Source of the DNA: Janibacter cremeus
GTDB lineage: Bacteria > Actinomycetota > Actinomycetes > Actinomycetales > Dermatophilaceae
Direction: 5' to 3'
DNA: 64,000 nucleotides
NCBI RefSeq assembly: GCF_029395675.1
Contig: NZ_CP115184.1
Span: 2,108,001 to 2,172,000, forward strand
Both the position numbers and the translations under genes were made by a program. Below are positions 24,121 through 49,304 of the stretch, in pieces. Within the stretch, counting starts at the first letter, position 1. Each line of letters begins with the position of its first letter. The notes beneath the pieces are model-generated. The model saw only the letters and a program-made list of their open reading frames with translations. It was not told the origin of the DNA and ran no database searches.

Positions 24121-24963
24121 ATGGACGTATGGCGCATCACGGTGGCGGTCGTGCGCCGCTGGTACGTGTTCCTGCCCCTGCTCGCGCTGACGCTCCTGGC
24201 CGCCCTGCAGGTCGGCGCGGCAACCCCGACGCAGCACCAGGTCTCGGCGACCGCAATCCTCGTCGCCGGTGACGCCTCGTCCGAGGAGCAGACCAGTGCC
24301 TACGGAGGTAGGAGCGCCACGGCCGAGGTCCTGGTCGTCGTGCTCGACGCCCCCGAGGTGCGCGAGGCCATCGAGGCGGAGGGGCTGGTCCGTGACTACG
24401 AGGTTCGCGCTGAAGACGACCTGTCCATCATCGACTTCGTCGCGCTCGGCGACACCCGCGCGGAGGGCCTGGCAACGGTGACCGCGGTCGTCGACCTGGC
24501 TCGTCAGGAACTCGCCGAGCGGCAGACCGCCGCAGACATCCCCCCCGGCGACCGACTCGAGATGCAGGTGCTGCAGCCACCGCACGTCGCAGAGGTGGTG
24601 GCCGAAGGCAAGTTGCGCAACATGGCGATCGTCGGCGTCCTCGGTGCTGCGCTGTCGCTGCTCGCAGCCATCCTCTTCGACGACATCGTGGGGCTGCTCA
24701 AACACTGGAAGCGCCACCCGCGCAGGCGCGCCACCACCGGCAAGGATGACGTCGACGCAGTGCCCAATAGTCCCGACTCCGGGGACGAGGCGACCACCGA
24801 CCCACGCGACGGCTCGCGGGGGCGCACGGAGTCCGGGCCGGACGAACAGGAGACCGCGTCGATCCTCACCAGCGCGGCCGACGACACACCGCCCGCGACA
24901 CCCGTGCAGGGGTCCCGTACCGACCCCGTCCAGGTCGGCAACTCCAGCGACGGCCACCCATGA
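24121..24963 (+). CDS. Wzz/chain-length-determinant-like membrane protein
   Basis: A 280-residue polysaccharide co-polymerase-like protein. It has an N-terminal helix ('WYVFLPLLALTLLAALQVG'), an extracytoplasmic helical domain, and a second helix ('LRNMAIVGVLGAALSLLAAILF') preceded by a Pro-poor 'PPHVAEVVAEGK' segment. A hydrophilic acidic tail of about 80 residues lacks any Walker motif, so no kinase domain is fused. Such proteins set polymer length with Wzy. GGGGAGG precedes the ATG. A 213-residue paralogue lies at 38062. The polymerase gene follows after 20 bp. Confidence 0.82.
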   Translation: MDVWRITVAVVRRWYVFLPLLALTLLAALQVGAATPTQHQVSATAILVAGDASSEEQTSAYGGRSATAEVLVVVLDAPEVREAIEAEGLVRDYEVRAEDDLSIIDFVALGDTRAEGLATVTAVVDLARQELAERQTAADIPPGDRLEMQVLQPPHVAEVVAEGKLRNMAIVGVLGAALSLLAAILFDDIVGLLKHWKRHPRRRATTGKDDVDAVPNSPDSGDEATTDPRDGSRGRTESGPDEQETASILTSAADDTPPATPVQGSRTDPVQVGNSSDGHP

Positions 24964-26471: not shown

Positions 26472-26639
26472 GGGTCCGTGCCGTTGGGAGCATGCGTGAC
26501 AGCGAGGATCCCGGGCGCGATGTTCATCGTCAGCGGTCCGGGTAGACGGCCGGTGAGGAGCGACCCGTGAGGAGCTGCCTGGGCCAGGCGGATCAGCCAG
26601 CACATCGGTTCGCACCACCACGAGACCTTGGTCCGACCG

Positions 26640-27503
26640 CAGGCTTTGTGCAGAGGTGGTCCAAGCTGACCTGGCACCGCGACGGTCCCGTCTCGGAGCC
26701 TGCCGACGGCGCGGGGCCCCGCTTGGCCGAGGCGGCCCGCGAGCTGGTCACAGTCGTGTTATCGAGGGGGGCGGTGATGAGTTCGTCGTCGGATGCCCGA
26801 AGCACCCTGCGGCACCCTCGACACGAACCTCTTGGCCATCGCTGCGGGGCTGCCGCGCCGGTGCCGCCGGGACGGTGGAAAGCCACCTTCCGCAGTTCTT
26901 GGCGTACCACCGGATCGCGCTCCGAGTCCCTTGGGGAGAACACGGCCGCGGAGCAGCGTCGTTCGTGGTTCTCGCCCTTCACGACGTACGAGCGACCATC
27001 GACTGCTGGCGGTGGGTGCCGCAACGCGCGCCATCTGTCCCAACAGCGAGCAACGGGGCGACCCCCTTCGCGACGTGCTCGTGGAAGACCTGTCGTCTTG
27101 GCTCCCGACAACCTGCTCGAGCGGAGCGACCGCATGTCGATGGCCGCGTCGCTCGAACGGCGGCCGCCGCTGCTGGATCATCGACTCGTCGAATTGGCCA
27201 TCCGGCTCCCCTCCCAGCACCAAGTCCATCGCACAACCACCCGTTGGCCCTGAAGGAGACCGCACGCTCCTGCCCGACGCAGGAAGGTGGGCTTCGGGGT
27301 CCCGCTCGATAGGTGGTTCGAGGCGCCCTGCGCGACTTCGTTAGCGACCGCCTCACCGACCCCCACTCGTTCCTCGCCATCACGTCCACCGTGCTGCCAT
27401 CACCTCACTGCTCGAGCGGCACGAGAGCGGCCGACTCAACGAGGACGACCGTATCTTCACCCTGGTGTCCCTCGCGGTGGGGCACGCGACCTTCTTCGCC
27501 TAG
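26640..27503 (+). pseudogene. Decayed asparagine synthetase (asnB-like) C-terminal half
   Basis: Fragments of the AsnB synthase domain occur in order but in alternating frames. They are 'LTWHRDGPVSEPADG' (about 26670), 'GGGDEFVVGCPKH' (about 26766, matching LSGEGGDELFGGYPKH), and 'DRMSMAASLERRPPLLDHRL' (about 27117, a hallmark of AsnB). Then come 'LKETARSCP' (27250), 'VGFGVPLDRWFEAP' (27284), 'LRDFVSDRLTDPHSFL' (27322) and 'LLERHESGRLNEDDRIF' (27408), ending at TAG 27501-27503. At least five frameshifts separate them, and the N-terminal glutaminase half is missing. The stretch 26472-26640 carries nothing recognisable. An intact AsnB lies 3 kb downstream, so this is probably the remnant of a replaced copy. 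Confidence 0.85.
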
Positions 27504-30182: not shown

Positions 30183-30386
30183 ATGACCGCTGATCAGGAT
30201 CAGGTACTGGCAGAGTTGCCACTTCCACTCTCGCCCGATGCCGATCCTCATGCTGCCCTGGAGCTGGCCATCGCGATCGAGGACGGTTGCGGGGTGATCC
30301 TCCCGGACGAGGCGATCACGGTGGCCCACCTCGGCACCCACAGGTCGATCACCGCGCTGCTGCGCAGTCTCGCCGAGCGCGCCTGA
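30183..30386 (+). CDS. ACP-like protein lacking the phosphopantetheine serine
   Basis: A 67-residue protein resembling the last three helices of acyl carrier protein. 'DADPHAALELAIAIEDGCGV' aligns with the ACP stretch GADSLDTVELVMALEEEFG, and 'ILPDEAIT' with EIPDEEA. The residue after the conserved Asp21 is Pro22 instead of the Ser that carries phosphopantetheine, and helix 1 is shortened. It therefore cannot be a normal carrier. Its TGA overlaps the ATG of the intact asnB (TGATG), so it is coupled to it. It may be a docking or regulatory partner, or a degenerate carrier. Confidence 0.65.
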   Translation: MTADQDQVLAELPLPLSPDADPHAALELAIAIEDGCGVILPDEAITVAHLGTHRSITALLRSLAERA

Positions 30387-32365
30387 TGTGCGGCATCGCC
30401 GGGGTCCTGTCCTTCGACTACCCGCCCGAGACCGACCTCGTCGCCCGCATGCTCACGCGACTGCCCCATCGTGGGCCCGATGGCAGCGGCATCTTCCGTG
30501 ACGAGCGGGTGGCGCTGGGCCACGTGCGGCTGGCGATCATCGACGTGGCCGGCGGTCAGCAACCCATGTCCGTCGATGACGAGTCGTTGTGGATCACCTT
30601 CAACGGGGAGATCTTCAACTACCTCGAGCTGCGCGAGGAGCTTGCGACCCTCGGCCACCGGTTCCGTACCGACAGCGACACGGAGGTCATCCTCCATGCC
30701 TGGCAGCAGTGGCAGGAGGGGTGCTTCTCCCGATTCAACGGTCAGTGGGCCCTGGCGATCTGGGAGCGGCGCAACCAGCGTCTGATCCTCTCCCGGGACC
30801 GCTTGGGGGTCCGGCCGCTCTACCTGACCCGGCACGGTGGCCGCCTCGTCTTCGCATCGGAGGTCAAGGCGATCTTCGCCGATCCGAGGATCCCGAGGAC
30901 GTTCGACCGTGTGGGTCTTGCCGAGACGATGACCTTCTGGAGTGCCGTCGCACCCCGCACCGTCTTCGCCGGGGTCGAGCAGCTGCCGCCCGGACACGTG
31001 GCCATCATCACCGAGCGGACGGAGCGCATCCTCCCCTTCTGGCAACCGCAGTTCCCACACCGCGGGGCCGAGGAGAGCCAGGACCTGGCGCGCAACGCCG
31101 GTGACCTGCGCGATCGTCTGATCGAGGCGGTGCGGTTGCGGTTCCTGCGCAGCGATGTGCCGGTCGGGGCCTACCTGTCCGGCGGCATCGACTCCGCCGT
31201 CACCGCGGCTGTCATCACGCGGTACACCGACGTACCCCTGCAGACCTTCTCCCTGCGGTTCGCCGACGCGGACTTCGACGAAGGCAGCTTCCAGCTCGCG
31301 ATGGCGCGACGTCTGGGCACCGAGCACCACCAGATCACGGTCGACGCGCGGGACATCGGCAGGATCTTCCCCGAGGCCGTGCGGCACGCGGAGACACCGA
31401 TCCTGCGCGCGGCCCCCGCGCCGATGCTCCTGCTGTCCCGGCTGGCCCGGGAGCACGGCTACCGGGTCGTGGTCACCGGTGAGGGCGCCGACGAGGTGCT
31501 CGCCGGCTACGACGTCTTCCGCGAGGCACGTCTGCGCGAGTTCATCGCGCGGGACCCCGACTCGGCGCTGCGCGCCAAGGCGCTCGACCTGCTGTACCCG
31601 TGGATGGCCCGGTCCCCGGGTCGGGCACCCGCCTTCGCGCGCGAGTTCTTCGGCCGCGGTCTCGATGTCACCGACCCGGCGTTCTCGCATCGACCACGGT
31701 GGGACTCCACGTCGGCGCTGCTGGGCATGACCGCGCCGCACCCGGACTGGGCCACCGACGTGGCCACTGCCCTGACGGGGACGATGCCGAGCGCGCACGA
31801 GGCCTGGGACCCGCTCAGTCGCGCCCAGTGGCTGGAGATGACGACGCTGCTCCCCGGGTACATCCTTGCCTCGCAAGGCGACCGCATGCTCATGGCCAAC
31901 TCCGTCGAGGGACGGTTCCCGTTCCTCGACAAGGACGTGGTGGACCTCGCAAATCGCCTACCGAGTCGCCACAAGCTGCTCGGCCTGGACGAGAAGCACA
32001 TCCTCAAGAAGGCATTCGCCGACCTGCTTCCCGACGAGATCCTCACCCGGCCCAAGCAGCCGTACCGGTCACCGGACGCCGCGTCGTTCTTCGTCGACGG
32101 CAGCAGCCCCTGGGTGGATGAGGTGACCGCGCCCGATGCGGTGGCTGCGGCAGGGATCTTCGAGTCGGGTGTGGTCGCAGCACTCATGGCGAAGGTCCGG
32201 CGCACGGGCGGGGTCCGGATGAGCAACACCGACAACATGAGAGTTCTCGCGGTGCTGTCGACACAGCTCATCCACCACCAGTTCATCGCCGGTGACGGCT
32301 CATCGCCGGCCGACCGACCACCGGCCGAGCCGATGACACTGATCGATCGAGCAGCTCACAGTTAG
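30386..32365 (+). CDS. asnB: Asparagine synthase (glutamine-hydrolysing) family amidotransferase
   Basis: A complete class II amidotransferase of 659 residues. The N-terminal 'MCGIAGVLSF' exposes Cys2 as the glutaminase nucleophile, followed by 'RGPDGSG' and 'NGEIFNYLELREEL'. The synthase half has the PP-loop 'YLSGGIDSAVTAA' near 263-275, 'VVTGEGADEVLAGY' and 'DRMLMANSVEGRFPFLD'. It would amidate a carboxylate using Gln and ATP. In polysaccharide loci such enzymes often act on sugar or acyl carboxylates rather than on aspartate. It is coupled to the ACP-like gene before it, and the NadE-like gene follows after 10 bp. Confidence 0.93.
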   Translation: MCGIAGVLSFDYPPETDLVARMLTRLPHRGPDGSGIFRDERVALGHVRLAIIDVAGGQQPMSVDDESLWITFNGEIFNYLELREELATLGHRFRTDSDTEVILHAWQQWQEGCFSRFNGQWALAIWERRNQRLILSRDRLGVRPLYLTRHGGRLVFASEVKAIFADPRIPRTFDRVGLAETMTFWSAVAPRTVFAGVEQLPPGHVAIITERTERILPFWQPQFPHRGAEESQDLARNAGDLRDRLIEAVRLRFLRSDVPVGAYLSGGIDSAVTAAVITRYTDVPLQTFSLRFADADFDEGSFQLAMARRLGTEHHQITVDARDIGRIFPEAVRHAETPILRAAPAPMLLLSRLAREHGYRVVVTGEGADEVLAGYDVFREARLREFIARDPDSALRAKALDLLYPWMARSPGRAPAFAREFFGRGLDVTDPAFSHRPRWDSTSALLGMTAPHPDWATDVATALTGTMPSAHEAWDPLSRAQWLEMTTLLPGYILASQGDRMLMANSVEGRFPFLDKDVVDLANRLPSRHKLLGLDEKHILKKAFADLLPDEILTRPKQPYRSPDAASFFVDGSSPWVDEVTAPDAVAAAGIFESGVVAALMAKVRRTGGVRMSNTDNMRVLAVLSTQLIHHQFIAGDGSSPADRPPAEPMTLIDRAAHS

Positions 32366-32375
32366 GGAAATGGAC

Positions 32376-33356
32376 ATGGCATCGACATTCGGACCGCACA
32401 CGCTGCAGATCGACCTGCCCGCAGAGGCCCAGCGGATCGGGGAGCACATCCGGGAGTACCTCGCACGCACCCGCCGCAAGGGGGTGGTGGTGGCCCTCTC
32501 CGGCGGGATCGACTCGAGCGTGGTCGCGGCGCTGGCCGTCGACGCACTCGGGCCCGAGCGGGTCTTCGGCATCCACATGCCGGAGAAGGAGTCCTCGGCG
32601 CAGACCCTGTCGGTCAGCACCGGCCTCTCGGACGCGCTGGGCATCGCCTCGTCGGTGGAGGACATCACTGCGATCCTCGAGGCCTTCGGCGCGTACGAGC
32701 GCAGGGACCAGGCCATCCGCATCGTCTGTCCCGAGTATGGGCCCGGGTACCGCTCGAAGATCGTGCTGCCGTCGGTCATCGACACCGACAGCTACCGGCT
32801 CTACTCGATCGTCGTGATGGATCCGGACGGCGGGCAGCAGACCTACCGCCTGACGTCGGAGGCCTACCTCGGGATCGTTGCCGCGACCAACTTCAAGCAG
32901 CGGGCACGCAAGGCGCTGGAGTACTACCACGCAGACCGACTGAACTACGTGGTCGCGGGCACCCCCAACCGACTCGAGTTCGACCAGGGATTCTTCGTCA
33001 AGCTCGGCGACGGTGCTGCGGACGTCAAACCCATCGCCCACCTCTACAAGTGCCAGGTCTACGCACTCGCCGAGCACCTGGGCGTCCCGGAGGAGATCCG
33101 CAGCCGCCCCTCGACCACCGACACCTACTCCCTGCCCCAGTCGCAGGAGGAGTTCTACTTCTCCCTGCCGCACGACCGGATGGATCTGTGCCTCTACGGC
33201 AAGAACAACGAGGTGCCGAGGGAGCAGGTGGCTGCGGCCGCCGGGTTGACACCCGAGCAGGTCGACCGGGTCTACCGGGACATCGAGCAGAAGCGTCGCG
33301 CGACCGAGTACCTCCACCTGCCCCCCGCCCTGGTCGAGGAAGTGGGGCAGGTGTGA
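32376..33356 (+). CDS. NAD synthetase-like PP-loop ATP pyrophosphatase of polysaccharide-cluster type
   Basis: A 326-residue N-type ATP pyrophosphatase. The PP-loop 'ALSGGIDSSVVAALA' is near residues 40-54, and 'GTPNRLEFDQGFFVKLGDGA' followed by 'DVKPIAHLYKCQVYALAEHL' matches the NadE core. The last third diverges, with 'TYSLPQSQEEFYFSLP' replacing the usual NadE ending, and no glutaminase domain is fused. A housekeeping nadE would not be expected between an asnB and a phosphotransferase in this locus. I infer a specialised ammonia-dependent adenylating/amidating enzyme. The second ATG (32376) is preferred because AGGGA lies 7 bases upstream. Confidence 0.8.
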   Translation: MASTFGPHTLQIDLPAEAQRIGEHIREYLARTRRKGVVVALSGGIDSSVVAALAVDALGPERVFGIHMPEKESSAQTLSVSTGLSDALGIASSVEDITAILEAFGAYERRDQAIRIVCPEYGPGYRSKIVLPSVIDTDSYRLYSIVVMDPDGGQQTYRLTSEAYLGIVAATNFKQRARKALEYYHADRLNYVVAGTPNRLEFDQGFFVKLGDGAADVKPIAHLYKCQVYALAEHLGVPEEIRSRPSTTDTYSLPQSQEEFYFSLPHDRMDLCLYGKNNEVPREQVAAAAGLTPEQVDRVYRDIEQKRRATEYLHLPPALVEEVGQV

Positions 33357-33401: not shown

Positions 33402-34457
33402 TCAGGGGCGCCGCACGGCGCCCAGCGACTCGTGGAGGTGATGGCACCACAGTGCTCGCCGGGCGGTGGCTCCGTTCCCGTCGAGGTGGGCGATGATCGA
33501 GGTCAGGATGGAGCGGACGCACTTCAGCTCCATGGCCACGCGCACGAGATCCCGCTCCACCGGCATGCGGCTCGCCTCCTCGTAGGCGGACACGAACTCC
33601 TCGACCGTCCGGGGATCCGTGCCCACGAGGACCACTGCGGCGGCTCCGACCTCGAGCACCCAGGGCGCGACCGTGGCGTTGTCGAAGTCCAGCAGCGCGC
33701 GCACCCGGAAGGCCTCGTCGAAGACGAGGTTCTCCCAGTTGAGGTCGTCGTGGATCAGCCCCAGGTCAGCCCGACCGACACGGCGGGCGATCGACTGCCC
33801 GGCCAGCCACTCGGCCCGGCTCGCCATCTCGGGCAGGACACTGATGATCCATCGCTCGAACGCGGACTTGGCGGGATTGAGCCGCAGGGCATGCAACCTG
33901 CGGAACAGTCGCCGGCCCGGCCTGCGGATCTCGGCGAGGCTCAGCCGTGGCAGGGTGAGCAGCCGGTCGGCCTCCCCCCTTCGCGAGCCCGCTGCACCGA
34001 GCTCCTGCTGAGCGCTGACGAGGTGCATCCTCCCGACCAGCATGGCCAGCTCGCTGGCGACTCCGGGATGGCGAGCAAGCAGCTCGTCCCGCTCGCCGAT
34101 CGCGATCTGGCGACCGTCGACCCAACCGTGGAGGGCGTACTGCACGGCGCCGTCCTCGACGAGCGTCGCCCCCGTGAGCGCGCGGCACAGGGGGGCCACC
34201 GGGAACCCGACCTCGGCCAGGCGCAGCTCCAGCGGGTGGGACAGTGCGAGCCGCTCGATGCTCCGTGCCGAGGTGTGGCCCTTGAGCACCCACTCACGGC
34301 CATCGGCACGCACCCGAAGACCGGCATGCCGGCCGGCGCCCGAGACCACGGGGGCGATCGACTCCAGCGATGCCGGCGGGAGCCCGAACCGTGCAAGGAC
34401 CCGATGGATCTCGGCCTGGGGCGCCTCCTGGCTCCAGAACGACCGGGGAACCGTCAT
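33402..34457 (-). CDS. Aminoglycoside phosphotransferase/choline-kinase-like family protein
   Basis: A 351-residue kinase-like protein. The catalytic loop is 'GLIHDDLNWENLVFD' (HxDxxxxN) and the metal-binding 'ALLDFDNATVAPW' stands in for DFG, as in APH/choline/homoserine kinases. 'EWVLKGHTS' near the N-terminus contains the nucleotide-binding Lys. It probably phosphorylates a small hydroxylated molecule such as a sugar or choline; antibiotic resistance cannot be claimed. ATG 34457 lies 5 bases after TAGACT (minus strand, 34463-34468), suggesting a leaderless message, though upstream starts exist. It converges on the NadE-like gene and is divergent from a GT4 gene. Confidence 0.8.
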   Translation of the reverse strand: MTVPRSFWSQEAPQAEIHRVLARFGLPPASLESIAPVVSGAGRHAGLRVRADGREWVLKGHTSARSIERLALSHPLELRLAEVGFPVAPLCRALTGATLVEDGAVQYALHGWVDGRQIAIGERDELLARHPGVASELAMLVGRMHLVSAQQELGAAGSRRGEADRLLTLPRLSLAEIRRPGRRLFRRLHALRLNPAKSAFERWIISVLPEMASRAEWLAGQSIARRVGRADLGLIHDDLNWENLVFDEAFRVRALLDFDNATVAPWVLEVGAAAVVLVGTDPRTVEEFVSAYEEASRMPVERDLVRVAMELKCVRSILTSIIAHLDGNGATARRALWCHHLHESLGAVRRP

Positions 34458-34663
34458 GCCGCAGTCTAGGCACGTCATCACGTGTCGGGGCGATACCCGC
34501 ACGGCCAGCCCGGGAGGACCCGCCGCGTGCCGCGCCGTGTGCGCCCACCCCCTGCGGCTCGGGCCTTCCGCGGGGTGTCCCGGTGCTCTAACCTTGGGTC
34601 AATACTCGGGATCCGTCGACTTCTCGACGCATCCTCGGATCGACTGGGTCGAGCGGGGGCGAC

Positions 34664-38061: not shown

Positions 38062-38703
38062 TCACGGTGCCCCCGCCCCACCGGGGTCGTCTGACTGATC
38101 GTGCTCGAGGGCCCTGCGGTCAGGTCCGCGACGCCGCAGCCAAGCCACGAGGTCGTCGACGAGGACGGTCAGGAGCAGCGACAGGGCCACCCCGATGGCC
38201 CCGACCATCACCGCGTTGCGCCGTGCGCCCTCGACCACGTCCCAATCAGACGGCGTCTGCAGGATCTGCATCACCGTCCGTGCTCTGGGTGACACGCCCG
38301 CGGCCGCCTGTCGCTGCGCCAGCTCCTGCCGGGCCATCGCCAGGACCGCCTCACCGGTGGCCACGCTTCGCTCCCGGGAGTCATCCACGACCGCGACGTT
38401 CAACAGGTCGCTGTTGTCACGGGCCTCGATCAGGTAGTCGGGGTTCAGGCCCAGCCGGGCGATCGCAGCGCGGCTGCGCCCGTTCGCGAGCACGATCGAC
38501 AAGGCCTGGGTCGTGTCCTCGATGCTTCCGTACGGCCGGTCGGTGGGCGGATCGCCCGGCACAAGAATGGCTGTGGCCGACGTCTCGTACTGCGGGCGCA
38601 CCCCCTCCTCGACCCGCAACGCGGCCATGACGGTCAGGATGACCAGGGGCAGAAAGACGTACCAGCGACGCAGGACGGCGCCGGCACCACGTCCGACATC
38701 CAT
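38062..38703 (-). CDS. Wzz/chain-length-determinant-like membrane protein (second copy)
   Basis: A 213-residue paralogue of the protein at 24121. It shares the N-terminal helix 'RRWYVFLPLVILTVMAALRV', 'SATAILVPGD', the helical 'MARQELAQRQAAAGVSP' and the second helix 'VMVGAIGVALSLLLTVLVDD'. The long acidic tail of the first copy is replaced by a short basic one. It should form an oligomeric co-polymerase in the membrane. It follows the ACP gene after 15 bp and precedes the sugar dehydrogenase lipoprotein. Confidence 0.82.
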   Translation of the reverse strand: MDVGRGAGAVLRRWYVFLPLVILTVMAALRVEEGVRPQYETSATAILVPGDPPTDRPYGSIEDTTQALSIVLANGRSRAAIARLGLNPDYLIEARDNSDLLNVAVVDDSRERSVATGEAVLAMARQELAQRQAAAGVSPRARTVMQILQTPSDWDVVEGARRNAVMVGAIGVALSLLLTVLVDDLVAWLRRRGPDRRALEHDQSDDPGGAGAP

Positions 38704-39099: not shown

Positions 39100-40593
39100 G
39101 TGACCCAGAGCGGGGCCAACGTCAGCCAGTATCTCCTGGGGACCGGTCGGCCGGAAGACACCGCCGTCATCGATCGCAACGGCGCGCACACCTACGCCAC
39201 GCTGCGGCAGGCAACGGCCGCGCTGGCCCGGGTCATCGCCTCCTGGGAGCTGGCTCCCGGCTCGCGGATCGGGCTGCTCAGCCGCAACTCGCTGTTCTGG
39301 GCGGCCTCGTACCTGGCCATCATGCGCGCCGGACACGTCGCGGTGCCCTTCACCACCTCGCTCACACCGCAGGACGTGCTCGTCAAGGCGCGTTTCGTCG
39401 ACTGCGACTGCTTCCTCGTCGACTCGGGGCTGTGGCGGACCTTCGGACCGGTCCTGGAGTCGGCCACCCACCTGGCCGACGACACCGTGCTGCACGAGCC
39501 GGCCCGTCCCGGCGGCGAGGCGGTGAGTGCGGTTGATCCGGACGATGATGCCGTCCTGATGTTCACGTCAGGTACCACGTCCGCACCCCGCGCAGTGCGC
39601 GTGAGTCACCGCAACATCCGAGCCAACACGGACTCGATCATCGAGTACCTGGCGCTCACGGCGCAGGACCGGATCCTCGTCGTCCTGCCGTTCTCGTACT
39701 GCTACGGGGCGTCGCTGCTGCACACGCACCTGCGGGCCGGGGCCAGTGTGTCGATCTGCGACACCTTCGCCTTCCCCGAGACGGTCATCGAGGCCATTCG
39801 CCGTGACCACTGCACCGGCTTCGCGGGGGTGCCCTCCAGCTACCAGCTGCTGCTGCGTGCCAGCTCCTTCGAGAGTGCCCCCCTGCCGTCCCTGAGGTAC
39901 CTGCAGCAGGCCGGCGGGCGCCTGCCGCAGCCCCAGATCGATGCCGTGGCCGCGGCCCAGCCGCACGCCCAGCTGTTCGTGATGTACGGCGCGACGGAGG
40001 CTACCTCGCGAATGTCGTATCTCCCTCCCGATGTGCGCCAGGAGCGCCGGGGCTCGATCGGTCGGGGGATCCCGGGTGTCAGCCTGACCGTCGTCGACGA
40101 CGAAGGAAAGGCCGTGGCCCCCGGCGTGGTCGGGGAGATCTTCGCGCGCGGGGAGAACGTGACCAAGGGGTACTGGAAGGATCCCGAGGGGACGGCCCGG
40201 ACCTTCGTCGACGGCGGGCTGCGCACCGGCGACCTGGCCCGTGCCGACGCCGACGGGTTCATCTACGTCGTCGACCGCAAGTCGGACTTCATCAAGTCGT
40301 GGGGCATCCGCGTCTCCAGCCGGGAGGTCGAGGACGCCGTGGTCGCCCTGCCCGGGGTGGCCGCGGCCGCAGCGGTCGGCCGGCCGGACGACGCGGCCGG
40401 CGAAGCCATCGTCGTGTTCTACGCGTGCCCCGAGGGCGTCGACCTGACGCCCGAGCAGGTTCTCGCCCACTGCCGTTCGACCCTGGCCAAGCACCTCGTC
40501 CCCCACGACGTGCGACGGATCCCACAGCTCCCACTCAACACGAACGGCAAGATCCTCAAGTCGCAGCTGAAGTCATTGGCCGCCACCCCATGA
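39100..40593 (+). CDS. AMP-dependent acyl-CoA/acyl-ACP ligase
   Basis: An adenylate-forming ligase of 497 residues. The core motif A3 is 'LMFTSGTTSAPRAVRVSH' near residues 151-168, A5 is 'FVMYGATEAT' near 295, A8 'GGLRTGDLARADADGFIYVV' holds the Asp hinge, and A10 'PLNTNGKILK' has the catalytic Lys. It would activate a carboxylic acid as acyl-AMP and load it onto the neighbouring ACP. GTG at 39100 is supported by GGGGGAGGA upstream. Its stop overlaps the SGNH-like gene, and acpS follows, giving a three-gene acyl-activation operon. The acid itself is unknown. Confidence 0.9.
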   Translation: MTQSGANVSQYLLGTGRPEDTAVIDRNGAHTYATLRQATAALARVIASWELAPGSRIGLLSRNSLFWAASYLAIMRAGHVAVPFTTSLTPQDVLVKARFVDCDCFLVDSGLWRTFGPVLESATHLADDTVLHEPARPGGEAVSAVDPDDDAVLMFTSGTTSAPRAVRVSHRNIRANTDSIIEYLALTAQDRILVVLPFSYCYGASLLHTHLRAGASVSICDTFAFPETVIEAIRRDHCTGFAGVPSSYQLLLRASSFESAPLPSLRYLQQAGGRLPQPQIDAVAAAQPHAQLFVMYGATEATSRMSYLPPDVRQERRGSIGRGIPGVSLTVVDDEGKAVAPGVVGEIFARGENVTKGYWKDPEGTARTFVDGGLRTGDLARADADGFIYVVDRKSDFIKSWGIRVSSREVEDAVVALPGVAAAAAVGRPDDAAGEAIVVFYACPEGVDLTPEQVLAHCRSTLAKHLVPHDVRRIPQLPLNTNGKILKSQLKSLAATP

Positions 40594-41318
40594 GCGCGCC
40601 CTCGTCCGCGGAACTGCTCGCAGTGGGTCGGGCACGGGTGTTCTTCGCCCACCAGTCGGTCGGCGAAAACATCCTCGCTGCCATCCCCCGGGTCTACCGG
40701 ATGCGGCAACTGTCACCCCCGAAGGTCAGCGAGCTCGCCGACTCCGGGCCCGAGGACCGTCTGGTGCACACCCGGATCGGACACAATGGCGACCCGCTCG
40801 GCAAGATCGCGGAGTTCGACCGCCTGATCCGCCAGGGCCTCGGCGACAGCGCGGACGCCACCCTCCTGAAGCTCTGCTATGCGGACGTGCGCGACACCAC
40901 CGACGTCCGCGGATCCTTCACGGCCTACCACGAGACCATGGCCGCGCTGCAGGTGGCGTACCCGGAGGTCAGCGTCCTCGTGGCGACGGTCCCCCTCACG
41001 ACACCGCGCAGCGCGAGGGGGAAGGTCAAGCAGTGGCTCGGCCGGGGGGACCGGCACGGACCGGAGCACAACGTCGCCAGGGAGCAGTTCAACTCGCTCC
41101 TGCGTGCGGCGTATGCCGGGACCGGACGCCTCGTCGACATCGCCGCGATCGAGTCCACCGGCCCACGCGGCCGACGTGTCACCAGCCGGCACCGGGGTCG
41201 GACCTGCCCCGCTCTCGCGCGCGAGTACGCCAGTGACCACGGGCACCTCAACGAGGCCGGCGGTCTGGCAGTCGCCGGCGGCATGCTCGGCGTGCTGGCC
41301 AGCGCCGTGCGGGCATGA
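40590..41318 (+). CDS. SGNH/GDSL-like protein of polysaccharide loci, cytoplasmic form
   Basis: A 242-residue protein without signal peptide. It has 'RVFFAHQSVGENI' near residues 13-25, where Ser could be the nucleophile, 'HTRIGHNGDPLGKIAEFD', 'LLKLCYADVRD' and a C-terminal 'DHGHLNEAGG', which looks like the Asp-x-x-His of SGNH hydrolases. I do not recognise a characterised member. It shares all these blocks with the membrane-anchored protein at 48435. ATGA overlap with the AMP ligase and 4-bp spacing to acpS suggest it transfers or removes the ACP-linked acyl group. Confidence 0.6.
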   Translation: MSAPSSAELLAVGRARVFFAHQSVGENILAAIPRVYRMRQLSPPKVSELADSGPEDRLVHTRIGHNGDPLGKIAEFDRLIRQGLGDSADATLLKLCYADVRDTTDVRGSFTAYHETMAALQVAYPEVSVLVATVPLTTPRSARGKVKQWLGRGDRHGPEHNVAREQFNSLLRAAYAGTGRLVDIAAIESTGPRGRRVTSRHRGRTCPALAREYASDHGHLNEAGGLAVAGGMLGVLASAVRA

Positions 41319-41322
41319 GCCG

Positions 41323-41727
41323 ATGCCCATCGTCGGGGTCGGCACGGACGTCGTCGACGTGCACCGCATTGCTCGTCTGGTCGACCGGGACGGCCATCGC
41401 TTCCTCTCGCGATGGTTCCGACCGACGGAGGTGGGCCCCCCTTCGCCGGTAAGGGTCCCCGCCCACCACATCGCCGCCCTCCTCGCAGCGAAGGAGGCCA
41501 CCTTCAAGTCCCTGCGGGTGTCGGGCTCCGGTCCGGTGCCGTGGCACGACATCGAGATCATCCACCACCCCGGGCACCGAGGAGCGACGGTCCGCCTCCA
41601 CGCGAGCTTGCACGGGCTCGCGGCTGCTGCCGGCATCTCGGGCTTCCACGTCTCGATGTCGCACACCAGCGACTACGCCACCGCGTCGGTCCTGGCCGTC
41701 GCAGGTGAGGGTCACGACTCCGTCTGA
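41323..41727 (+). CDS. acpS: Holo-ACP synthase-like 4'-phosphopantetheinyl transferase
   Basis: A 134-residue AcpS-type enzyme that moves phosphopantetheine from CoA to the Ser of a carrier protein. 'VGVGTDVVDVHRIARL' is the N-terminal motif with the Mg-binding Asp, and 'LLAAKEATFKSL' contains the W/A-x-x-KEA motif with Glu and Lys. The length is normal. Its place in this operon, rather than near fatty acid genes, implies that it is dedicated to the carrier at 38719. Its 3' end overlaps the convergent ABC transporter gene by 16 bp. Confidence 0.9.
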   Translation: MPIVGVGTDVVDVHRIARLVDRDGHRFLSRWFRPTEVGPPSPVRVPAHHIAALLAAKEATFKSLRVSGSGPVPWHDIEIIHHPGHRGATVRLHASLHGLAAAAGISGFHVSMSHTSDYATASVLAVAGEGHDSV

Positions 41728-43568
41728 CGCTGGGTGATCTCGTTGACCTCCCGGAAGAAGGCGCTCTCCTCCATGAGGTCGGCCTGGGTGCCCAGGGCCG
41801 AGACGCGCCCGTCGACCATCACCACGATGCGGTCGCACACTGTCAGCGTCGAGAGTCGGTGCGCGACCAGGATGGTGATCGTGTCCCGCTTGATCTCCCG
41901 CAGCGACTGCTGGACCAGCTCCTCCGAGCGCACGTCGAGGGCACTCGTCGGTTCGTCCAGGACGAGCACCTCCGGGTCCTCCGCGAGAGCCCGTGCCAGA
42001 CAGATCCGCTGGCGCTGGCCACCGGAGACCGCGCTGGCCCGTTGACCGATGACCGTGTCGTACCCCAGCGGCCACGACATGATGTCGTCGTGGATGTGCG
42101 CCCGACGTGCCGCCACCACCACCTCCTCGTCGGTGATCCAGTCACGGTGGAAGACGATGTTCTCCCGGACCGTCCCCCAGATCACCTGCGAGGACTGGGG
42201 TACGTAGGCCACACGTCTCTGCCAGTCCGCGCGCCTGACCGCGCGCACGTCCCGGCCGTTGACCACCACGGCCCCGGCCCGTGGGTCGCGCAACCGGAGC
42301 AGGACCTGCACGATCGAGGACTTGCCGGCTCCCGAGGGACCGACGATGCCGATGGCCTCGCCCCGCCGGAGCTCGAAGCTCACGTCATGGAGGACGTCGG
42401 TGTCCCGCTCGTACCCGAAACAGACGTGCGCCAGCCCGAGACTGTGGATCTCCTCGAGCCCCTCGGGGCCATCCTGCTGGGGACGACGGCGATAGCGTTC
42501 AAGGGCATCGGCGATCTGGTTCATGAAGGGCACGCGCTCGTCGATGGTGGTGATGGCCGACTGGATCTGCTGGGCGTAGGTGAGCGCGCGGATCAGCAGC
42601 AGGATGACCGCCGCGAGGGCAGCGAGCTCGGCGGTACCCACCAGCCCGACTGCGATGAGCGCCACCACGAGCAGCAGCAGCGCGACGCTCTGGTAGAGGC
42701 CGGGGAGGCCGACTGCCATGAACCGCGTGCGGATGTACGGACGGCGCACCGCCTCCACCTGGTCCCGGAACGCGTCGCGGAACCGGGGCGTCGACCCGAA
42801 GACCTCGGTCTCCTCAGCGACCTGGACCACTTCCTGGACGGTGTTCGTGAAGGACATCACCTCCCTGCTCAACCGTTTCGCGTGCTTGCGCAGGCGACGC
42901 GAGAGCGGACGGAGCGCGACGAACAGCGCCAGCGAGGCCGCCATGAACACCGCCGCCGCCACGAAGTTCTGCAGGAAGGCACCGACGGTCATCGTGACGA
43001 ACATGATGGTCGCGGTGATACCGAGTCCCAGGTTGATCGCCGTCAGGCCCGTGTACGAGGCGTTCTGCATCATGAGGTTCTGGAATGCGCCGTCACGTTC
43101 CCGCGACTTCACCGACCAGGCCGTCGACGTGAAGGACTCGAACAGCTGGATGCGCAGGTCGGCCAGTACCTGGGCGCTCATCCGTGCCGGGATGTAGGCG
43201 AGCACCAGCTGCAGGCCCGCACGCAGCAGGGCCATCCCCACGGCGACGGCAAAGACCGTCGAGCGCCCCATGTCCACGGACAACGGCCCGAACTGCTGGG
43301 TGATACCCCCGCCACCCTCGGCAAGACCGACGGCCATCGACGCGATGAGCATCAGCAGGCCGGCCTCCACGAAGCCGGCCAGGATCGACACGACGACGAT
43401 CGATGCGAGGAGGGGCGTGGATGAGCGGAAGAACGGAGAGAGGCGGCGCCATGCGCGGCGCAGGCGCACCACGCTGTGGACGGGCCAGATGCGCTGCCAC
43501 CCCGCGCGTGAGGCGGTCTCACCCACCGTCGCCCCCCGTCTGTGCTGATCCCTCGTGTGAGCGGTCAC
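41712..43568 (-). CDS. ABC transporter, fused permease-ATPase (exporter/flippase-like)
   Basis: A 618-residue half-transporter. Residues about 40-330 hold six membrane helices of the type I exporter fold. The ATPase domain has Walker A 'IVGPSGAGKSSIVQ' near 407-420, signature 'SAVSGGQRQRICLARAL' near 513 and Walker B 'VLVLDEPTSALD'. It resembles MsbA/PglK-type lipid-linked oligosaccharide flippases. No Wzx flippase is visible in the locus, so this protein is the best candidate to move the repeat unit across the membrane. GTG at 43568 is the first start in frame. It is co-directional with the acetyltransferase, 11 bp after its stop. Confidence 0.9.
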   Translation of the reverse strand: MTAHTRDQHRRGATVGETASRAGWQRIWPVHSVVRLRRAWRRLSPFFRSSTPLLASIVVVSILAGFVEAGLLMLIASMAVGLAEGGGGITQQFGPLSVDMGRSTVFAVAVGMALLRAGLQLVLAYIPARMSAQVLADLRIQLFESFTSTAWSVKSRERDGAFQNLMMQNASYTGLTAINLGLGITATIMFVTMTVGAFLQNFVAAAVFMAASLALFVALRPLSRRLRKHAKRLSREVMSFTNTVQEVVQVAEETEVFGSTPRFRDAFRDQVEAVRRPYIRTRFMAVGLPGLYQSVALLLLVVALIAVGLVGTAELAALAAVILLLIRALTYAQQIQSAITTIDERVPFMNQIADALERYRRRPQQDGPEGLEEIHSLGLAHVCFGYERDTDVLHDVSFELRRGEAIGIVGPSGAGKSSIVQVLLRLRDPRAGAVVVNGRDVRAVRRADWQRRVAYVPQSSQVIWGTVRENIVFHRDWITDEEVVVAARRAHIHDDIMSWPLGYDTVIGQRASAVSGGQRQRICLARALAEDPEVLVLDEPTSALDVRSEELVQQSLREIKRDTITILVAHRLSTLTVCDRIVVMVDGRVSALGTQADLMEESAFFREVNEITQRQTES

Positions 43569-43578
43569 CGGAGCCGTC

Positions 43579-44262
43579 TCAGGCTCCGGCGTCGTACGCG
43601 TCGATGAATCCCTGGATGTCCTCGGACATCATCAGATCCAGTGACGCCACGATGCGCTCGTCGCTCCAGTCCCACCACCTGATGCGCAGGAGCGCCTCGA
43701 TCTGCTCGGGGGTGAACCTGAATCCCGCCACTCGCGCCGGGTTCCCGAGCACGATGGCGTAGGCGGGCACGTTCTGTCGGACGACGCTGCCGGCCCCGAC
43801 GATGACACCGTCGCCGATGGTCACGCCCGACAAGATCACCGATTCGTGGCCGATCCACACGTCATTGCCGATGATCACGTCCCCGCGCGCCACCGTGTCG
43901 CCGCGGACGGGTTCGTACCACTCGTTGAACGGCGGGTACTTCCCGAACCGGTACGTGGTGACGAAGTCGGCGCGGTGCTCTCCGCCGAGCAGGACCTCGG
44001 TGCCGAAGGCGAAGGAGCAGAACTGTCCGACCTCGAGCACGCACCCCGGTGAGCGATTGGCGATCCGCAGGTGCCCCCACGAGTAGCGTCCGATCTCGAA
44101 CTGCGCCAGGTCGGGTCGCTGGTCGAGTCGTCTGGCCGGCGGGTAGAAGAACTGCCGTCTGATGCGACCGAGCCGTTCTCGCGCTCCCCCACGAAGATTC
44201 ATCGGTTCCCCGTCCATCCGCGCAGGTCTGGTGACACCTGCGCTCTTGTGCGTCCCCACCAT
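43579..44262 (-). CDS. CatB-related left-handed beta-helix O-acetyltransferase
   Basis: A 227-residue hexapeptide-repeat acyltransferase of the xenobiotic/virginiamycin acetyltransferase type. 'GGEHRADFVTTYRFGKYPPF' includes the catalytic His region, and 'DVIIGNDVWIGHESVILSGV' with 'IGDGVIVGAGSVV' are the left-handed helix turns; 'GNPARVAGFRF' closes the domain. It would O-acetylate a sugar using acetyl-CoA. The start at 44262 has a weak ribosome site; 'MNLRGGARERLG' 20 codons later is a good alternative. It lies between the glycosyltransferase and the ABC gene in a leftward operon. Confidence 0.88.
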   Translation of the reverse strand: MVGTHKSAGVTRPARMDGEPMNLRGGARERLGRIRRQFFYPPARRLDQRPDLAQFEIGRYSWGHLRIANRSPGCVLEVGQFCSFAFGTEVLLGGEHRADFVTTYRFGKYPPFNEWYEPVRGDTVARGDVIIGNDVWIGHESVILSGVTIGDGVIVGAGSVVRQNVPAYAIVLGNPARVAGFRFTPEQIEALLRIRWWDWSDERIVASLDLMMSEDIQGFIDAYDAGA

Positions 44263-48230: not shown

Positions 48231-48434
48231 ACCGCTCCTGATCCAGAGCGCATCTCACTACGGCCCGGTGTCCGACGGGCCGTACCTCCCGGGGGCGGCG
48301 GTCGGGGTGAGCCGAGTCGCCACAGGCTGCGTGTCCCGTTCCGTGCCGGGCCACACCCGTTGACAACGTGAATAGTCTGGTTGTTCTCGGGGGGAGTTCG
48401 GTGGGGGCATCCTCGCCCACGGAGTGGGGGCACG
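48231..48434 (+). promoter_or_regulatory. Intergenic region with possible promoter of the anchored SGNH-like gene
   Basis: Together with copy B this makes a gap of about 300 bp. TTGACA at 48360-48365 is a good -35, but the facing hexamers (TAGTCT at 48373, too close; TTGTTC at 48381) are poor -10 elements. The segment 48231-48350 shows no gene and no repeat that I can recognise. Confidence 0.3.
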
Positions 48435-49304
48435 ATGAACAGAACTTTGAGGGCCCGTCTCGGCGTCACCGTCGCCGTCCTCGCTGTGGGCTCGCTGCTC
48501 CTGGTGTGGATGTTCCAACGTCAGGACCACGGCCAGTACTCGGCCGCGGACATCTCCGCGGCAGCAGACGGCACCGCGGTGCAGCGTGCTGCCGACCTTC
48601 GCGTGTTCTTCGCCCACCAGTCGGTCGGCGACGATCTGGTGAGCGAGATCCCGGCCGTCTACGCCGCGGCAGAGGTCACCTCGCCGGAGGTCATCGAGGT
48701 GTCCGGAGACCCTCGTGAGGGATCTGCCGTGCCGTCCTCGGACGAAGGCTTCTTCGCTCACACCCGGATCGGTGAGAACGGCGACCCGATCGGCAAGCTG
48801 GAGGAGTTCGATGCCTGGATGAGGGCCGGGATGGCCGACCGTGTCGACGTCGCCTTCATCAAGCTGTGCTACGTCGACCTCACCGGCGACACCGACGCCG
48901 ATGCTGTCTTCAAGCGGTACAACCAGACCCTGGCCAGCCTCGAACGTGACTATCCCGACGTGACCTTTGTCGTCGTCACCACGCCCCTGTCCACCGAGCC
49001 AGAGCTCAAGACGAGGATCAAGGGCCTGCTGGGCAGGGATCATCCGGCTCCGAAGTCCAACGCGGTGCGGCAACGTTTCAACGAACTCCTACGCGAGCAG
49101 TACGGGACGCGGGTGTTCGACGTGGCCGCCTTCCAGTCGACTGCGCCCGACGGCTCCAGGATCCGCGGCACCGTCGATGGACAGGAGTACTTCGCGCTCT
49201 ACGACGGCCACGCGCGCGACCAGGGACACCTCAACGACACAGCATCAGCGGTGGCGGCAGCGCGACTGATGACCTTCCTCGCCGACGCCACCGCCCCCGA
49301 CTGA
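48435..49304 (+). CDS. Membrane-anchored SGNH/GDSL-like protein (paralogue of the 40590 gene)
   Basis: A 289-residue protein with one N-terminal helix ('LGVTVAVLAVGSLLLVWMF') and an outward-facing domain. It shares every block with the protein at 40590: 'RVFFAHQSVGDDL', 'HTRIGENGDPIGKLEEFD', 'FIKLCYVDLTGD', and 'RDQGHLNDTA' near the end, in the place of an SGNH Asp-x-x-His. I cannot name a characterised relative. One copy inside and one outside the membrane, both tied to this locus, suggests acyl handling on the precursor and on the exported polymer. It lies between copy B and the intact E2 gene. Confidence 0.65.
   Translation: MNRTLRARLGVTVAVLAVGSLLLVWMFQRQDHGQYSAADISAAADGTAVQRAADLRVFFAHQSVGDDLVSEIPAVYAAAEVTSPEVIEVSGDPREGSAVPSSDEGFFAHTRIGENGDPIGKLEEFDAWMRAGMADRVDVAFIKLCYVDLTGDTDADAVFKRYNQTLASLERDYPDVTFVVVTTPLSTEPELKTRIKGLLGRDHPAPKSNAVRQRFNELLREQYGTRVFDVAAFQSTAPDGSRIRGTVDGQEYFALYDGHARDQGHLNDTASAVAAARLMTFLADATAPD

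What the first reader, a model, noticed from the sequence alone, without database searches (positions are those of the whole stretch)
39100..41727. Dedicated acyl-activation module (AMP ligase, SGNH-like protein, AcpS, divergent ACP) inside a polysaccharide locus
The sequence shows an AMP ligase overlapping an SGNH-like gene, acpS 4 bp later, and an ACP gene divergent from the ligase across 114 bp. That set can activate an acid, prime a private carrier and hand the acyl group on. AMP ligases with ACPs and AsnB are known in exosortase-A exopolysaccharide loci, but I see no exosortase here, and the private AcpS and SGNH partner are unusual. I infer a system that decorates a polymer or lipid-linked sugar with a carrier-bound acyl group.
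Basis: partly seen in the sequence, partly recalled or inferred. Interest (0 to 1): 0.8.

Follow-up and report, generated by a model that had tools for sequence, protein, structure and literature searches.

The report
Carrier-bound acyl and amide gene module
A polysaccharide gene locus in an actinobacterium carries a set of enzymes that seems to load an acid onto a private carrier protein and add nitrogen to it, and the same core genes sit together in very different bacteria, so it looks like a real but still uncharacterised pathway.

Summary
The four genes are real and placed as described. The module is larger: 5 to 9 kb away lie AsnB and a NAD-synthase-like protein (PRK00876 family), plus an unannotated 67-aa, serine-less carrier-like ORF overlapping the AsnB start. 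Of 47 loci of 19 kb or more found through the SGNH family, 35 also hold ligase, ACP, AsnB and the NAD-synthase-like gene; the 43 such loci of any length span about ten phylum-level groups by record title. The core also stands without SGNH on rhizobial and Azospirillum plasmids (9 of 9 regions fetched), often beside GNAT-like acyltransferases. Its Sinorhizobium ligase/ACP pair is almost certainly SMb20650/SMb20651, for which ligase-dependent acylation is reported (PMC7232532). That ACP's DST motif is reported to hinder priming by basal AcpS (PMC12391972), which would explain a private AcpS. SGNH usually looks exported, so it is probably not the general acyl-acceptor enzyme. Most likely the module makes a carrier-bound, amidated acyl group that here decorates a glycan; acid and product are unknown. 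It is a new variant of the exosortase-A-type acyl/amidotransferase gene set, without exosortase; my ten searches listed no paper describing it.

The parts
30183..30386 (+). 67-aa serine-less carrier-like protein (helix II onward of an ACP), stop codon overlaps AsnB start
   Evidence: profile match to the module ACP 93% probability, E 3e-7 over 42 columns, against at most 0.8% for 20 column-shuffled profiles and three other module families; no Pfam/NCBIfam hit; third-position GC only 0.76
30386..32365 (+). AsnB-type glutamine amidotransferase, 659 aa, Cys2 and SGGxDS/GEGxDE motifs intact
   Evidence: PF00733/PF13537; TIGR01536 over cut-off, TIGR03108 below cut-off; conservation
32370..33356 (+). 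NAD-synthase-like PP-loop enzyme, PRK00876/NF002048 family, 328 aa
   Evidence: NF002048 502 bits, cut-off 313; intact SGGIDS and substrate loops; another PF02540 match in a 706-aa frame at 2327656 of the genome
38719..38985 (-). acyl carrier protein with DSTG motif, 88 aa
   Evidence: DSTG in 43 of 44 aligned module ACPs, one DSIG
39100..40593 (+). AMP-forming acyl ligase, 497 aa, GTG start
   Evidence: motifs
40590..41318 (+). SGNH-fold protein, 242 aa, no export signal seen
   Evidence: (S23, H219 invariant, D216 nearly, 26 rows)
41323..41727 (+). private AcpS (4'-phosphopantetheinyl transferase), 134 aa
   Evidence: two further PF01648 genes in the genome, one an AcpS 37.6% identical to this one
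41712..43568 (-). ABC exporter (NCBIfam models HepA, MsbA and PglK match, all below cut-off)
   Evidence: relatives near the module in the congener G126 (75%) and L009 (65%)
43579..44262 (-). hexapeptide acyltransferase, candidate acyl acceptor enzyme (ORF start uncertain)
   Evidence: 68-71% relatives near the module in L007 and L009
48381..49304 (+). second SGNH paralogue with N-terminal hydrophobic segment
   Evidence: 42% identity; hydropathy 2.37

Best explanation
The four genes are part of a conserved, patchily distributed (probably horizontally spread) module whose core is AsnB, ACP, AMP ligase and a NAD-synthase-like amide-forming enzyme. AcpS primes the DST-type ACP (inferred for this protein; the need for extra AcpS is reported for the Sinorhizobium protein). 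The ligase adenylates a carboxylic acid and loads it on the ACP (reported for what is almost certainly the Sinorhizobium pair). AsnB, helped by the serine-less carrier-like protein, and the NAD-synthase-like enzyme then put glutamine- or ammonia-derived nitrogen on the carrier-bound acid, giving an amidated or amino-bearing acyl group (inferred from intact catalytic motifs). In this genome an acyltransferase, most likely the hexapeptide protein at 43579-44262, moves that group to a sugar of a lipid-linked repeat before export (inferred). The exported SGNH relatives trim or re-transfer ester groups on the outside; the window's first SGNH has no export signal and would act inside (inferred).
For: Co-occurrence: 35 of 47 SGNH loci of 19 kb or more hold ligase, ACP, AsnB and NAD-synthase-like genes. 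Reverse: in 394 genomes of the class, 3 (this one and two of one other genus) have the NAD-synthase-like family and all 3 have SGNH within 8 kb. Core in one block on all 9 plasmid regions fetched, of 116 plasmid records hit (L101-L109). GNAT-like proteins beside the core where no SGNH was found: Azospirillum L108, L109 and actinobacterium G686 by Pfam; Shinella L106, L107 and Mesorhizobium L105 as homologues of the G686 protein. Hexapeptide proteins between SGNH and ACP in the myxobacterium Citreicoccus (L058) and after SGNH in Oscillochloris (L016) by Pfam; in Fibrobacteres L080 by tblastn only. Catalytic motif residues kept in most or nearly all of 44 rows. Literature passages: PMC7232532, PMC12391972.
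Against: Neither acid nor product is known. Amidation of a carrier-bound acid is not shown for any member. A glycan setting is not universal: 0 of 11 myxobacterial core loci resemble this window's glycosyltransferase or polymerase genes (other kinds would be missed) and the Sinorhizobium operon has none annotated in 13 kb. 17 of 80 loci hold the SGNH gene with none of the other seven families searched, some on short contigs. In two class members (G372, G499) the core is diverged and no ACP was detected. Hexapeptide enzymes are common in polysaccharide loci (recalled).
Confidence: 0.45

Rival explanations
1. The core makes a free small metabolite (an acyl amide, osmolyte or signal) and only happens to be kept in polysaccharide loci in some genomes.
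For: Four-gene operon asnB-ACP-ligase-nadE near minCDE on Sinorhizobium pSymB with no glycosyltransferase annotated in 13 kb; operons in Myxococcus, Oscillochloris and Fibrobacteres where I recognised no glycosyltransferase by eye; 0 of 11 myxobacterial core loci hit by this window's glycosyltransferase or polymerase genes.
Against: 14 of 21 actinobacterial core loci are hit by them; both Shinella regions have annotated glycosyltransferases within 5 kb of asnB; adjacent GNAT or hexapeptide acyltransferases suggest hand-over to an acceptor.
Confidence: 0.25
2. A Dlt-like system: ligase and ACP charge a small acid and the SGNH protein transfers it, as DltA, DltC and DltD do.
For: Same trio of protein kinds (Dlt recalled); SGNH model resembles the acetyltransferase PatB as well as esterases; window SGNH has no export signal.
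Against: No MBOAT match in the whole genome; no SGNH relative in the plasmid collection, where the core occurs; SGNH looks exported in most members; AsnB and NAD-synthase-like genes have no place in Dlt.
Confidence: 0.12
3. It is an exosortase-A (XrtA/PEP-CTERM) type EPS acyl module that lost its exosortase.
For: Ligase and AsnB have TIGR03098 and TIGR03108 as second-best NCBIfam profiles; for the Sinorhizobium ligase TIGR03098 is the best; L084 has two hydrolases whose best profiles are TIGR03101 and TIGR03100.
Against: All below curated cut-offs; exosortase found in only 3 of 22 genomes tested, none in this one; the NAD-synthase-like gene is not part of that set as I recall it.
Confidence: 0.13
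4. AsnB and the NAD-synthase-like gene are ordinary duplicates making asparagine and NAD, unrelated to the ACP genes.
For: Databases name them so; catalytic motifs are kept.
Against: Co-occurrence over distant phyla and one-block arrangement on plasmids; substrate loop differs from NadE in the printed alignment; another NAD synthase match is in the genome.
Confidence: 0.03

Closest known systems
Sinorhizobium meliloti SMb20650 (ligase) / SMb20651 (ACP)
   Same: pSymB ACP-ligase pair next to AsnB and NAD-synthase-like genes; ACP 42-43% and ligase 34-35% identical to the window's; DST motif; ligase reported to acylate the ACP in E. coli (PMC7232532, abstract and passages seen)
   Different: no SGNH, AcpS or serine-less carrier found in the region; function still reported as unknown (PMC5686131, PMC12391972 passages); locus tags are inferred, the strain 1021 record fetched carries no annotation
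Exosortase-A associated ligase/amidotransferase/hydrolase set (TIGR03098, TIGR03108, TIGR03100, TIGR03101)
   Same: AMP ligase, ACP, AsnB-type amidotransferase and hydrolases in EPS loci (context recalled)
   Different: scores below cut-offs, no exosortase in this genome, NAD-synthase-like enzyme and SGNH instead
PRK00876/NF002048 NAD(+) synthase subfamily
   Same: window protein over the family cut-off (502 vs 313 bits)
   Different: I saw no test of the NAD synthase name for this subfamily (not searched for specifically); gene context points to another carboxylate
DltA-DltC-DltD D-alanylation
   Same: ligase, carrier and SGNH-type protein (recalled)
   Different: no MBOAT, extra amidotransferases
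SPT-linked AcpR/AasR (specialised ACP with its own acyl-ACP synthetase, PMC9386255, passages seen)
   Same: private ACP selectively charged by its own ligase
   Different: serves sphingolipid synthesis with serine palmitoyltransferase; the word asparagine does not occur in its main text

Membership tests
AcpS phosphopantetheinyl transferase | PF01648 match and AcpS motifs | tested here: met
   39.9 bits over cut-off 25; TIGR00556 over cut-off, TIGR00516 58.5 against 59.8; D, KEA..K residues conserved in 20 aligned
Carrier protein (ACP/PCP) | phosphopantetheine serine in DS motif | tested here: met
   DSTG; 43 of 44 DSTG, one DSIG
SGNH hydrolase | SGNH fold with Ser and Asp-x-x-His | tested here: met
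   no sequence-profile match
Exosortase-A EPS system | exosortase in the genome | tested here: not met
   PF09721: no match in G000
Exosortase-A EPS system | ligase and amidotransferase over TIGR03098/TIGR03108 cut-offs | tested here: not met
   311 against 592 and 416 against 817 bits
Dlt system | DltB-type MBOAT | tested here: not met
   PF03062: none in G000
Dlt system | ligase activates D-alanine | not testable with these tools
   needs enzyme assay; no NRPS-like FDxS at A4 (the motif is recalled)
PRK00876 NAD-synthase subfamily | score over cut-off | tested here: met
True NAD synthase | converts deamido-NAD to NAD | not testable with these tools

The most novel reading that the evidence does not exclude
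A widespread pathway hidden under housekeeping names: a NAD-synthase paralogue (PRK00876) and an AsnB work on a carrier-bound acid, with a serine-less carrier fragment as a helper in actinobacteria, to make an amidated acyl group that different acyltransferases (hexapeptide, GNAT, SGNH) hand to glycans or other acceptors in many phyla. That would be a new reaction for the NadE family.
Probability: 0.35. Interest if true: 0.8.

Novelty: new variant of a known kind. Interest (0 to 1): 0.6.

Why it matters
The module gives a testable function for the orphan Sinorhizobium ACP SMb20651, a reason why some carriers need a private AcpS, and may reveal an undescribed glycan or lipid substituent.

Tried and rejected
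Rejected: Dlt-type system (no MBOAT); plain exosortase-A module (cut-offs and exosortase not met); Myxococcus BPS as the product: of six terms searched in the main text of PMC7310880, asparagine, acyl carrier, SGNH and NAD gave no occurrence, and I recognised no glycosyltransferase around the Myxococcus operon L056 (by eye; weak GT2b tblastn pieces vanish with composition-adjusted scoring).

Led nowhere: predicting the acid from the ligase pocket (no NRPS-like aspartate motif; two ligase types seen by eye); finding the set in print: searches list no paper whose title or abstract start describes the set; only open-licence PMC papers are held, and seven papers were opened, by term search of their main text. 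Ramos-Vega 2009 is not held and was not read. A reverse test centred on other phyla was not possible as I asked it.

Limits of counts: one search kept the best 80 of 185 relatives, so loci close to the query are over-represented; one search uses bit thresholds I chose and leaves out L007 and L008; the serine-less carrier count (16 of 55 loci with an AsnB start examined) was read by eye; the two export rules are crude and disagree (33 of 43; 40 of 44), and they use the longest ORF start; the distance correlations of 0.46-0.76 between module proteins have no control for species relatedness; phyla are from record titles, several of MAGs.
Full report
Observation. All four have the codon bias of genes here (third-position GC 0.87-0.91). 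Family searches support ligase, AcpS and ACP. The SGNH protein has no Pfam or NCBIfam match but a confident model (pLDDT 94.5) whose best solved matches are SGNH enzymes: PAF-acetylhydrolase-like, sialate O-acetylesterase and PatB, TM about 0.5. Ser23 and His219 are invariant and Asp216 nearly so in 26 aligned sequences.

Genome. The window lies in a 3,495,359-base single-contig genome. Among the named hits to its SGNH and NAD-synthase-like proteins the closest are from Janibacter. Two other PF01648 genes exist: one is an AcpS beside what by eye is glmS, 37.6% identical to the module AcpS, the other by eye an Sfp-type protein. The ACP has no paralogue at E 0.01. No exosortase and no MBOAT were found. 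Fourteen other places match the ligase at E 1e-20 or better, one with a stop inside.

The module is larger. A scan of GTDB genomes with the SGNH alignment gave 185 relatives, of which the best 80 loci were kept. Searching the window's genes in them showed that the SGNH gene often lies with the ligase, ACP, AsnB and a NAD-synthase-like gene; in the window the last two lie at 30386-33356. Over the 80 loci: AsnB 54, NAD-synthase-like 53, ligase 51, ACP 50, AcpS 24; 17 held SGNH and none of the other seven families searched. Of 47 loci of at least 19 kb, 35 hold all four core genes. Forty-three loci hold all four by ORF label. By record title they fall in Actinobacteria, Chloroflexi, Spirochaetes, Myxobacteria, Desulfobacteraceae and Geobacter, Fibrobacteres, Bacteroidetes, Eisenbacteria, Sedimentisphaerales and Gammaproteobacteria; several are MAGs, where misbinning is possible. 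Ligase, SGNH and AcpS follow one another in that order in 21 of these 43; in Spirochaete L071 some 2 kb lie between the last two. The congener G126 has the same arrangement around the finding, with 51-75% identity in HEX, ABC, AcpS, SGNH, ligase and ACP.

Spread. In the same family 2 of 149 genomes have the SGNH gene, both of one genus. In the class, 3 of 394 have the NAD-synthase-like family at E 1e-60, this genome included, and 5 of 394 have SGNH. All 3 of the former have SGNH within 8 kb. In the two others (one genus) the core relatives are diverged (ligase 28%, AsnB 36-37%, NAD-synthase-like 39%), AcpS is there (31%), and no ACP was detected. The two SGNH-only genomes, G408 and G461, show no core gene in the 13.7 and 12.0 kb fetched. 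In the phylum 2 of 296 have the NAD-synthase-like family; the new one, G686, has ligase-ACP-AsnB-NAD-synthase-like and no SGNH in the 20 kb fetched. Such patchiness fits horizontal transfer; it was not tested with a tree.

Core alone. A plasmid search with the NAD-synthase-like protein hit 116 records, while SGNH hit none. All nine plasmid regions fetched (L101-L109: three S. meliloti pSymB including strain 1021, Ensifer, Mesorhizobium, two Shinella, two Azospirillum) carry the four core genes in one block. Beside the core lie GNAT-like proteins in Azospirillum (2 of 2, Pfam E 1e-5 to 4e-5) and in G686 (E 2.5e-5). The Shinella and Mesorhizobium neighbours have no GNAT match in Pfam but are homologues of the G686 protein. 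None is among the annotated neighbours in Sinorhizobium; the Ensifer region was not examined for one. Eisenbacteria L072 has a GNAT after SGNH.

Literature anchor. PMC7232532 (abstract and passages seen) says that SMb20650, a ligase on pSymB, is cotranscribed with the ACP gene SMb20651, that holo-SMb20651 was made in E. coli with S. meliloti AcpS, and that adding SMb20650 gave acylated SMb20651 in vivo; it also reports that SMb20650 cannot replace FadD. PMC12391972 (one passage) says basal E. coli AcpS could not prime SMb20651, which has a DST motif, and that AcpS of E. coli or S. meliloti had to be co-overexpressed. The pSymB operon of strain 1021 found here has an ACP with DSTG directly before the ligase. 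I take it to be SMb20651/SMb20650, although the record used has no locus tags. The window ACP and 43 of 44 aligned ACPs, window included, have DSTG. So a private AcpS is reasonable: the carrier is one that ordinary AcpS may serve poorly. It is not a strict rule: AcpS was recognised in 22 of the 43 core loci. The acyl group was not named in the passages I saw.

Nitrogen enzymes. AsnB keeps the glutaminase cysteine and the synthetase motifs; the NAD-synthase-like protein keeps the PP-loop and a loop TTDTxSxxQSQExFYF where NadE has a different sequence in the printed alignment. The genome has another PF02540 match in a 706-aa frame. Hence I infer another carboxylate, probably on the carrier. A 67-aa ORF (30183-30386), whose stop overlaps the AsnB start, matches the ACP from just after the serine onward (93% probability, E 3e-7; at most 0.8% for 20 column-shuffled profiles and three other module families). 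Its codon bias is weaker than that of its neighbours (third-position GC 0.76). Similar ORFs precede AsnB in 16 of 55 loci examined (by eye), in actinobacteria and Spirochaetes, while myxobacteria have the true ACP in that slot. It has no family match.

SGNH role. By a hydropathy threshold 33 of 43 module SGNH proteins have an export-like N-terminus, by a laxer rule 40 of 44 with the window, which is one of the four without. A second window paralogue at 48381-49304 has one. So SGNH is more likely an outside esterase or transferase in general, and cytosolic in this lineage (the congener's copy also lacks the signal). The hexapeptide acyltransferase at 43579-44262 has 68-71% relatives near the module in L007 and L009. 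Other hexapeptide proteins sit beside SGNH or ACP in Citreicoccus L058 and Oscillochloris L016, so I favour it as the acceptor enzyme here.

Setting. With composition-adjusted scoring 14 of 43 core loci, all 14 among the 21 actinobacterial ones, are hit by this window's glycosyltransferase, Wzy, Wzz or pyruvyltransferase genes; none of 11 myxobacterial ones is. Other kinds of glycosyltransferase would be missed: both Shinella regions have annotated ones near the core.

Relation to known systems. Ligase and AsnB resemble the exosortase-A ligase and amidotransferase families but score below their cut-offs; L084 adds two hydrolases whose best profiles are TIGR03101 and TIGR03100, below cut-off. 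Exosortase was found in 3 of 22 genomes tested. I therefore call it a new variant of that kind of acyl/amidotransferase set, without exosortase and with a NAD-synthase paralogue. Ten literature searches listed no paper that describes the set.

Shown: gene set, co-occurrence, motifs, fold. Reported by others for the likely homologue: priming need and ligase-dependent acylation. Inferred: amidation on the carrier, transfer to a glycan, SGNH role.

Noticed in passing
window 30183-30386 (+): Unannotated 67-aa serine-less carrier-like ORF whose stop overlaps the AsnB start; similar ORFs in 16 of 55 loci examined (by eye).
   Followed up: partly
window 48381-49304 (+): Second SGNH paralogue with a hydrophobic N-terminus, 42% identical to the first, at the far end of the polysaccharide locus.
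   Followed up: partly
window 24121-24963 (+) and 38062-38703 (-): Two similar-looking Wzz-like membrane proteins (shared RRWYVFLPL start, by eye) at different places of the locus, no Pfam match.
   Followed up: no
window 26567-27253 (+): Partial Asn_synthase-like ORF (PF00733, E 1.7e-15) beside the Wzy gene; possibly a diverged or truncated second amidotransferase.
   Followed up: no
window 33402-34502 (-): APH-family phosphotransferase-like protein next to the NAD-synthase-like gene, with relatives in L008 (55%) and L009 (44%).
   Followed up: partly
L060 1854-6019: Two NAD-synthase-like genes near one ACP and one ligase in an Aminicenantes MAG; no AsnB found on that 12-kb stretch.
   Followed up: no
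L010 and L038: Diverged module variant with a DSLG-type ACP directly before AsnB.
   Followed up: no
control genomes of the genome search: Methanosarcina acetivorans is the only one of 14 control genomes with a PRK00876 match; an archaeal context would be worth a look.
   Followed up: no
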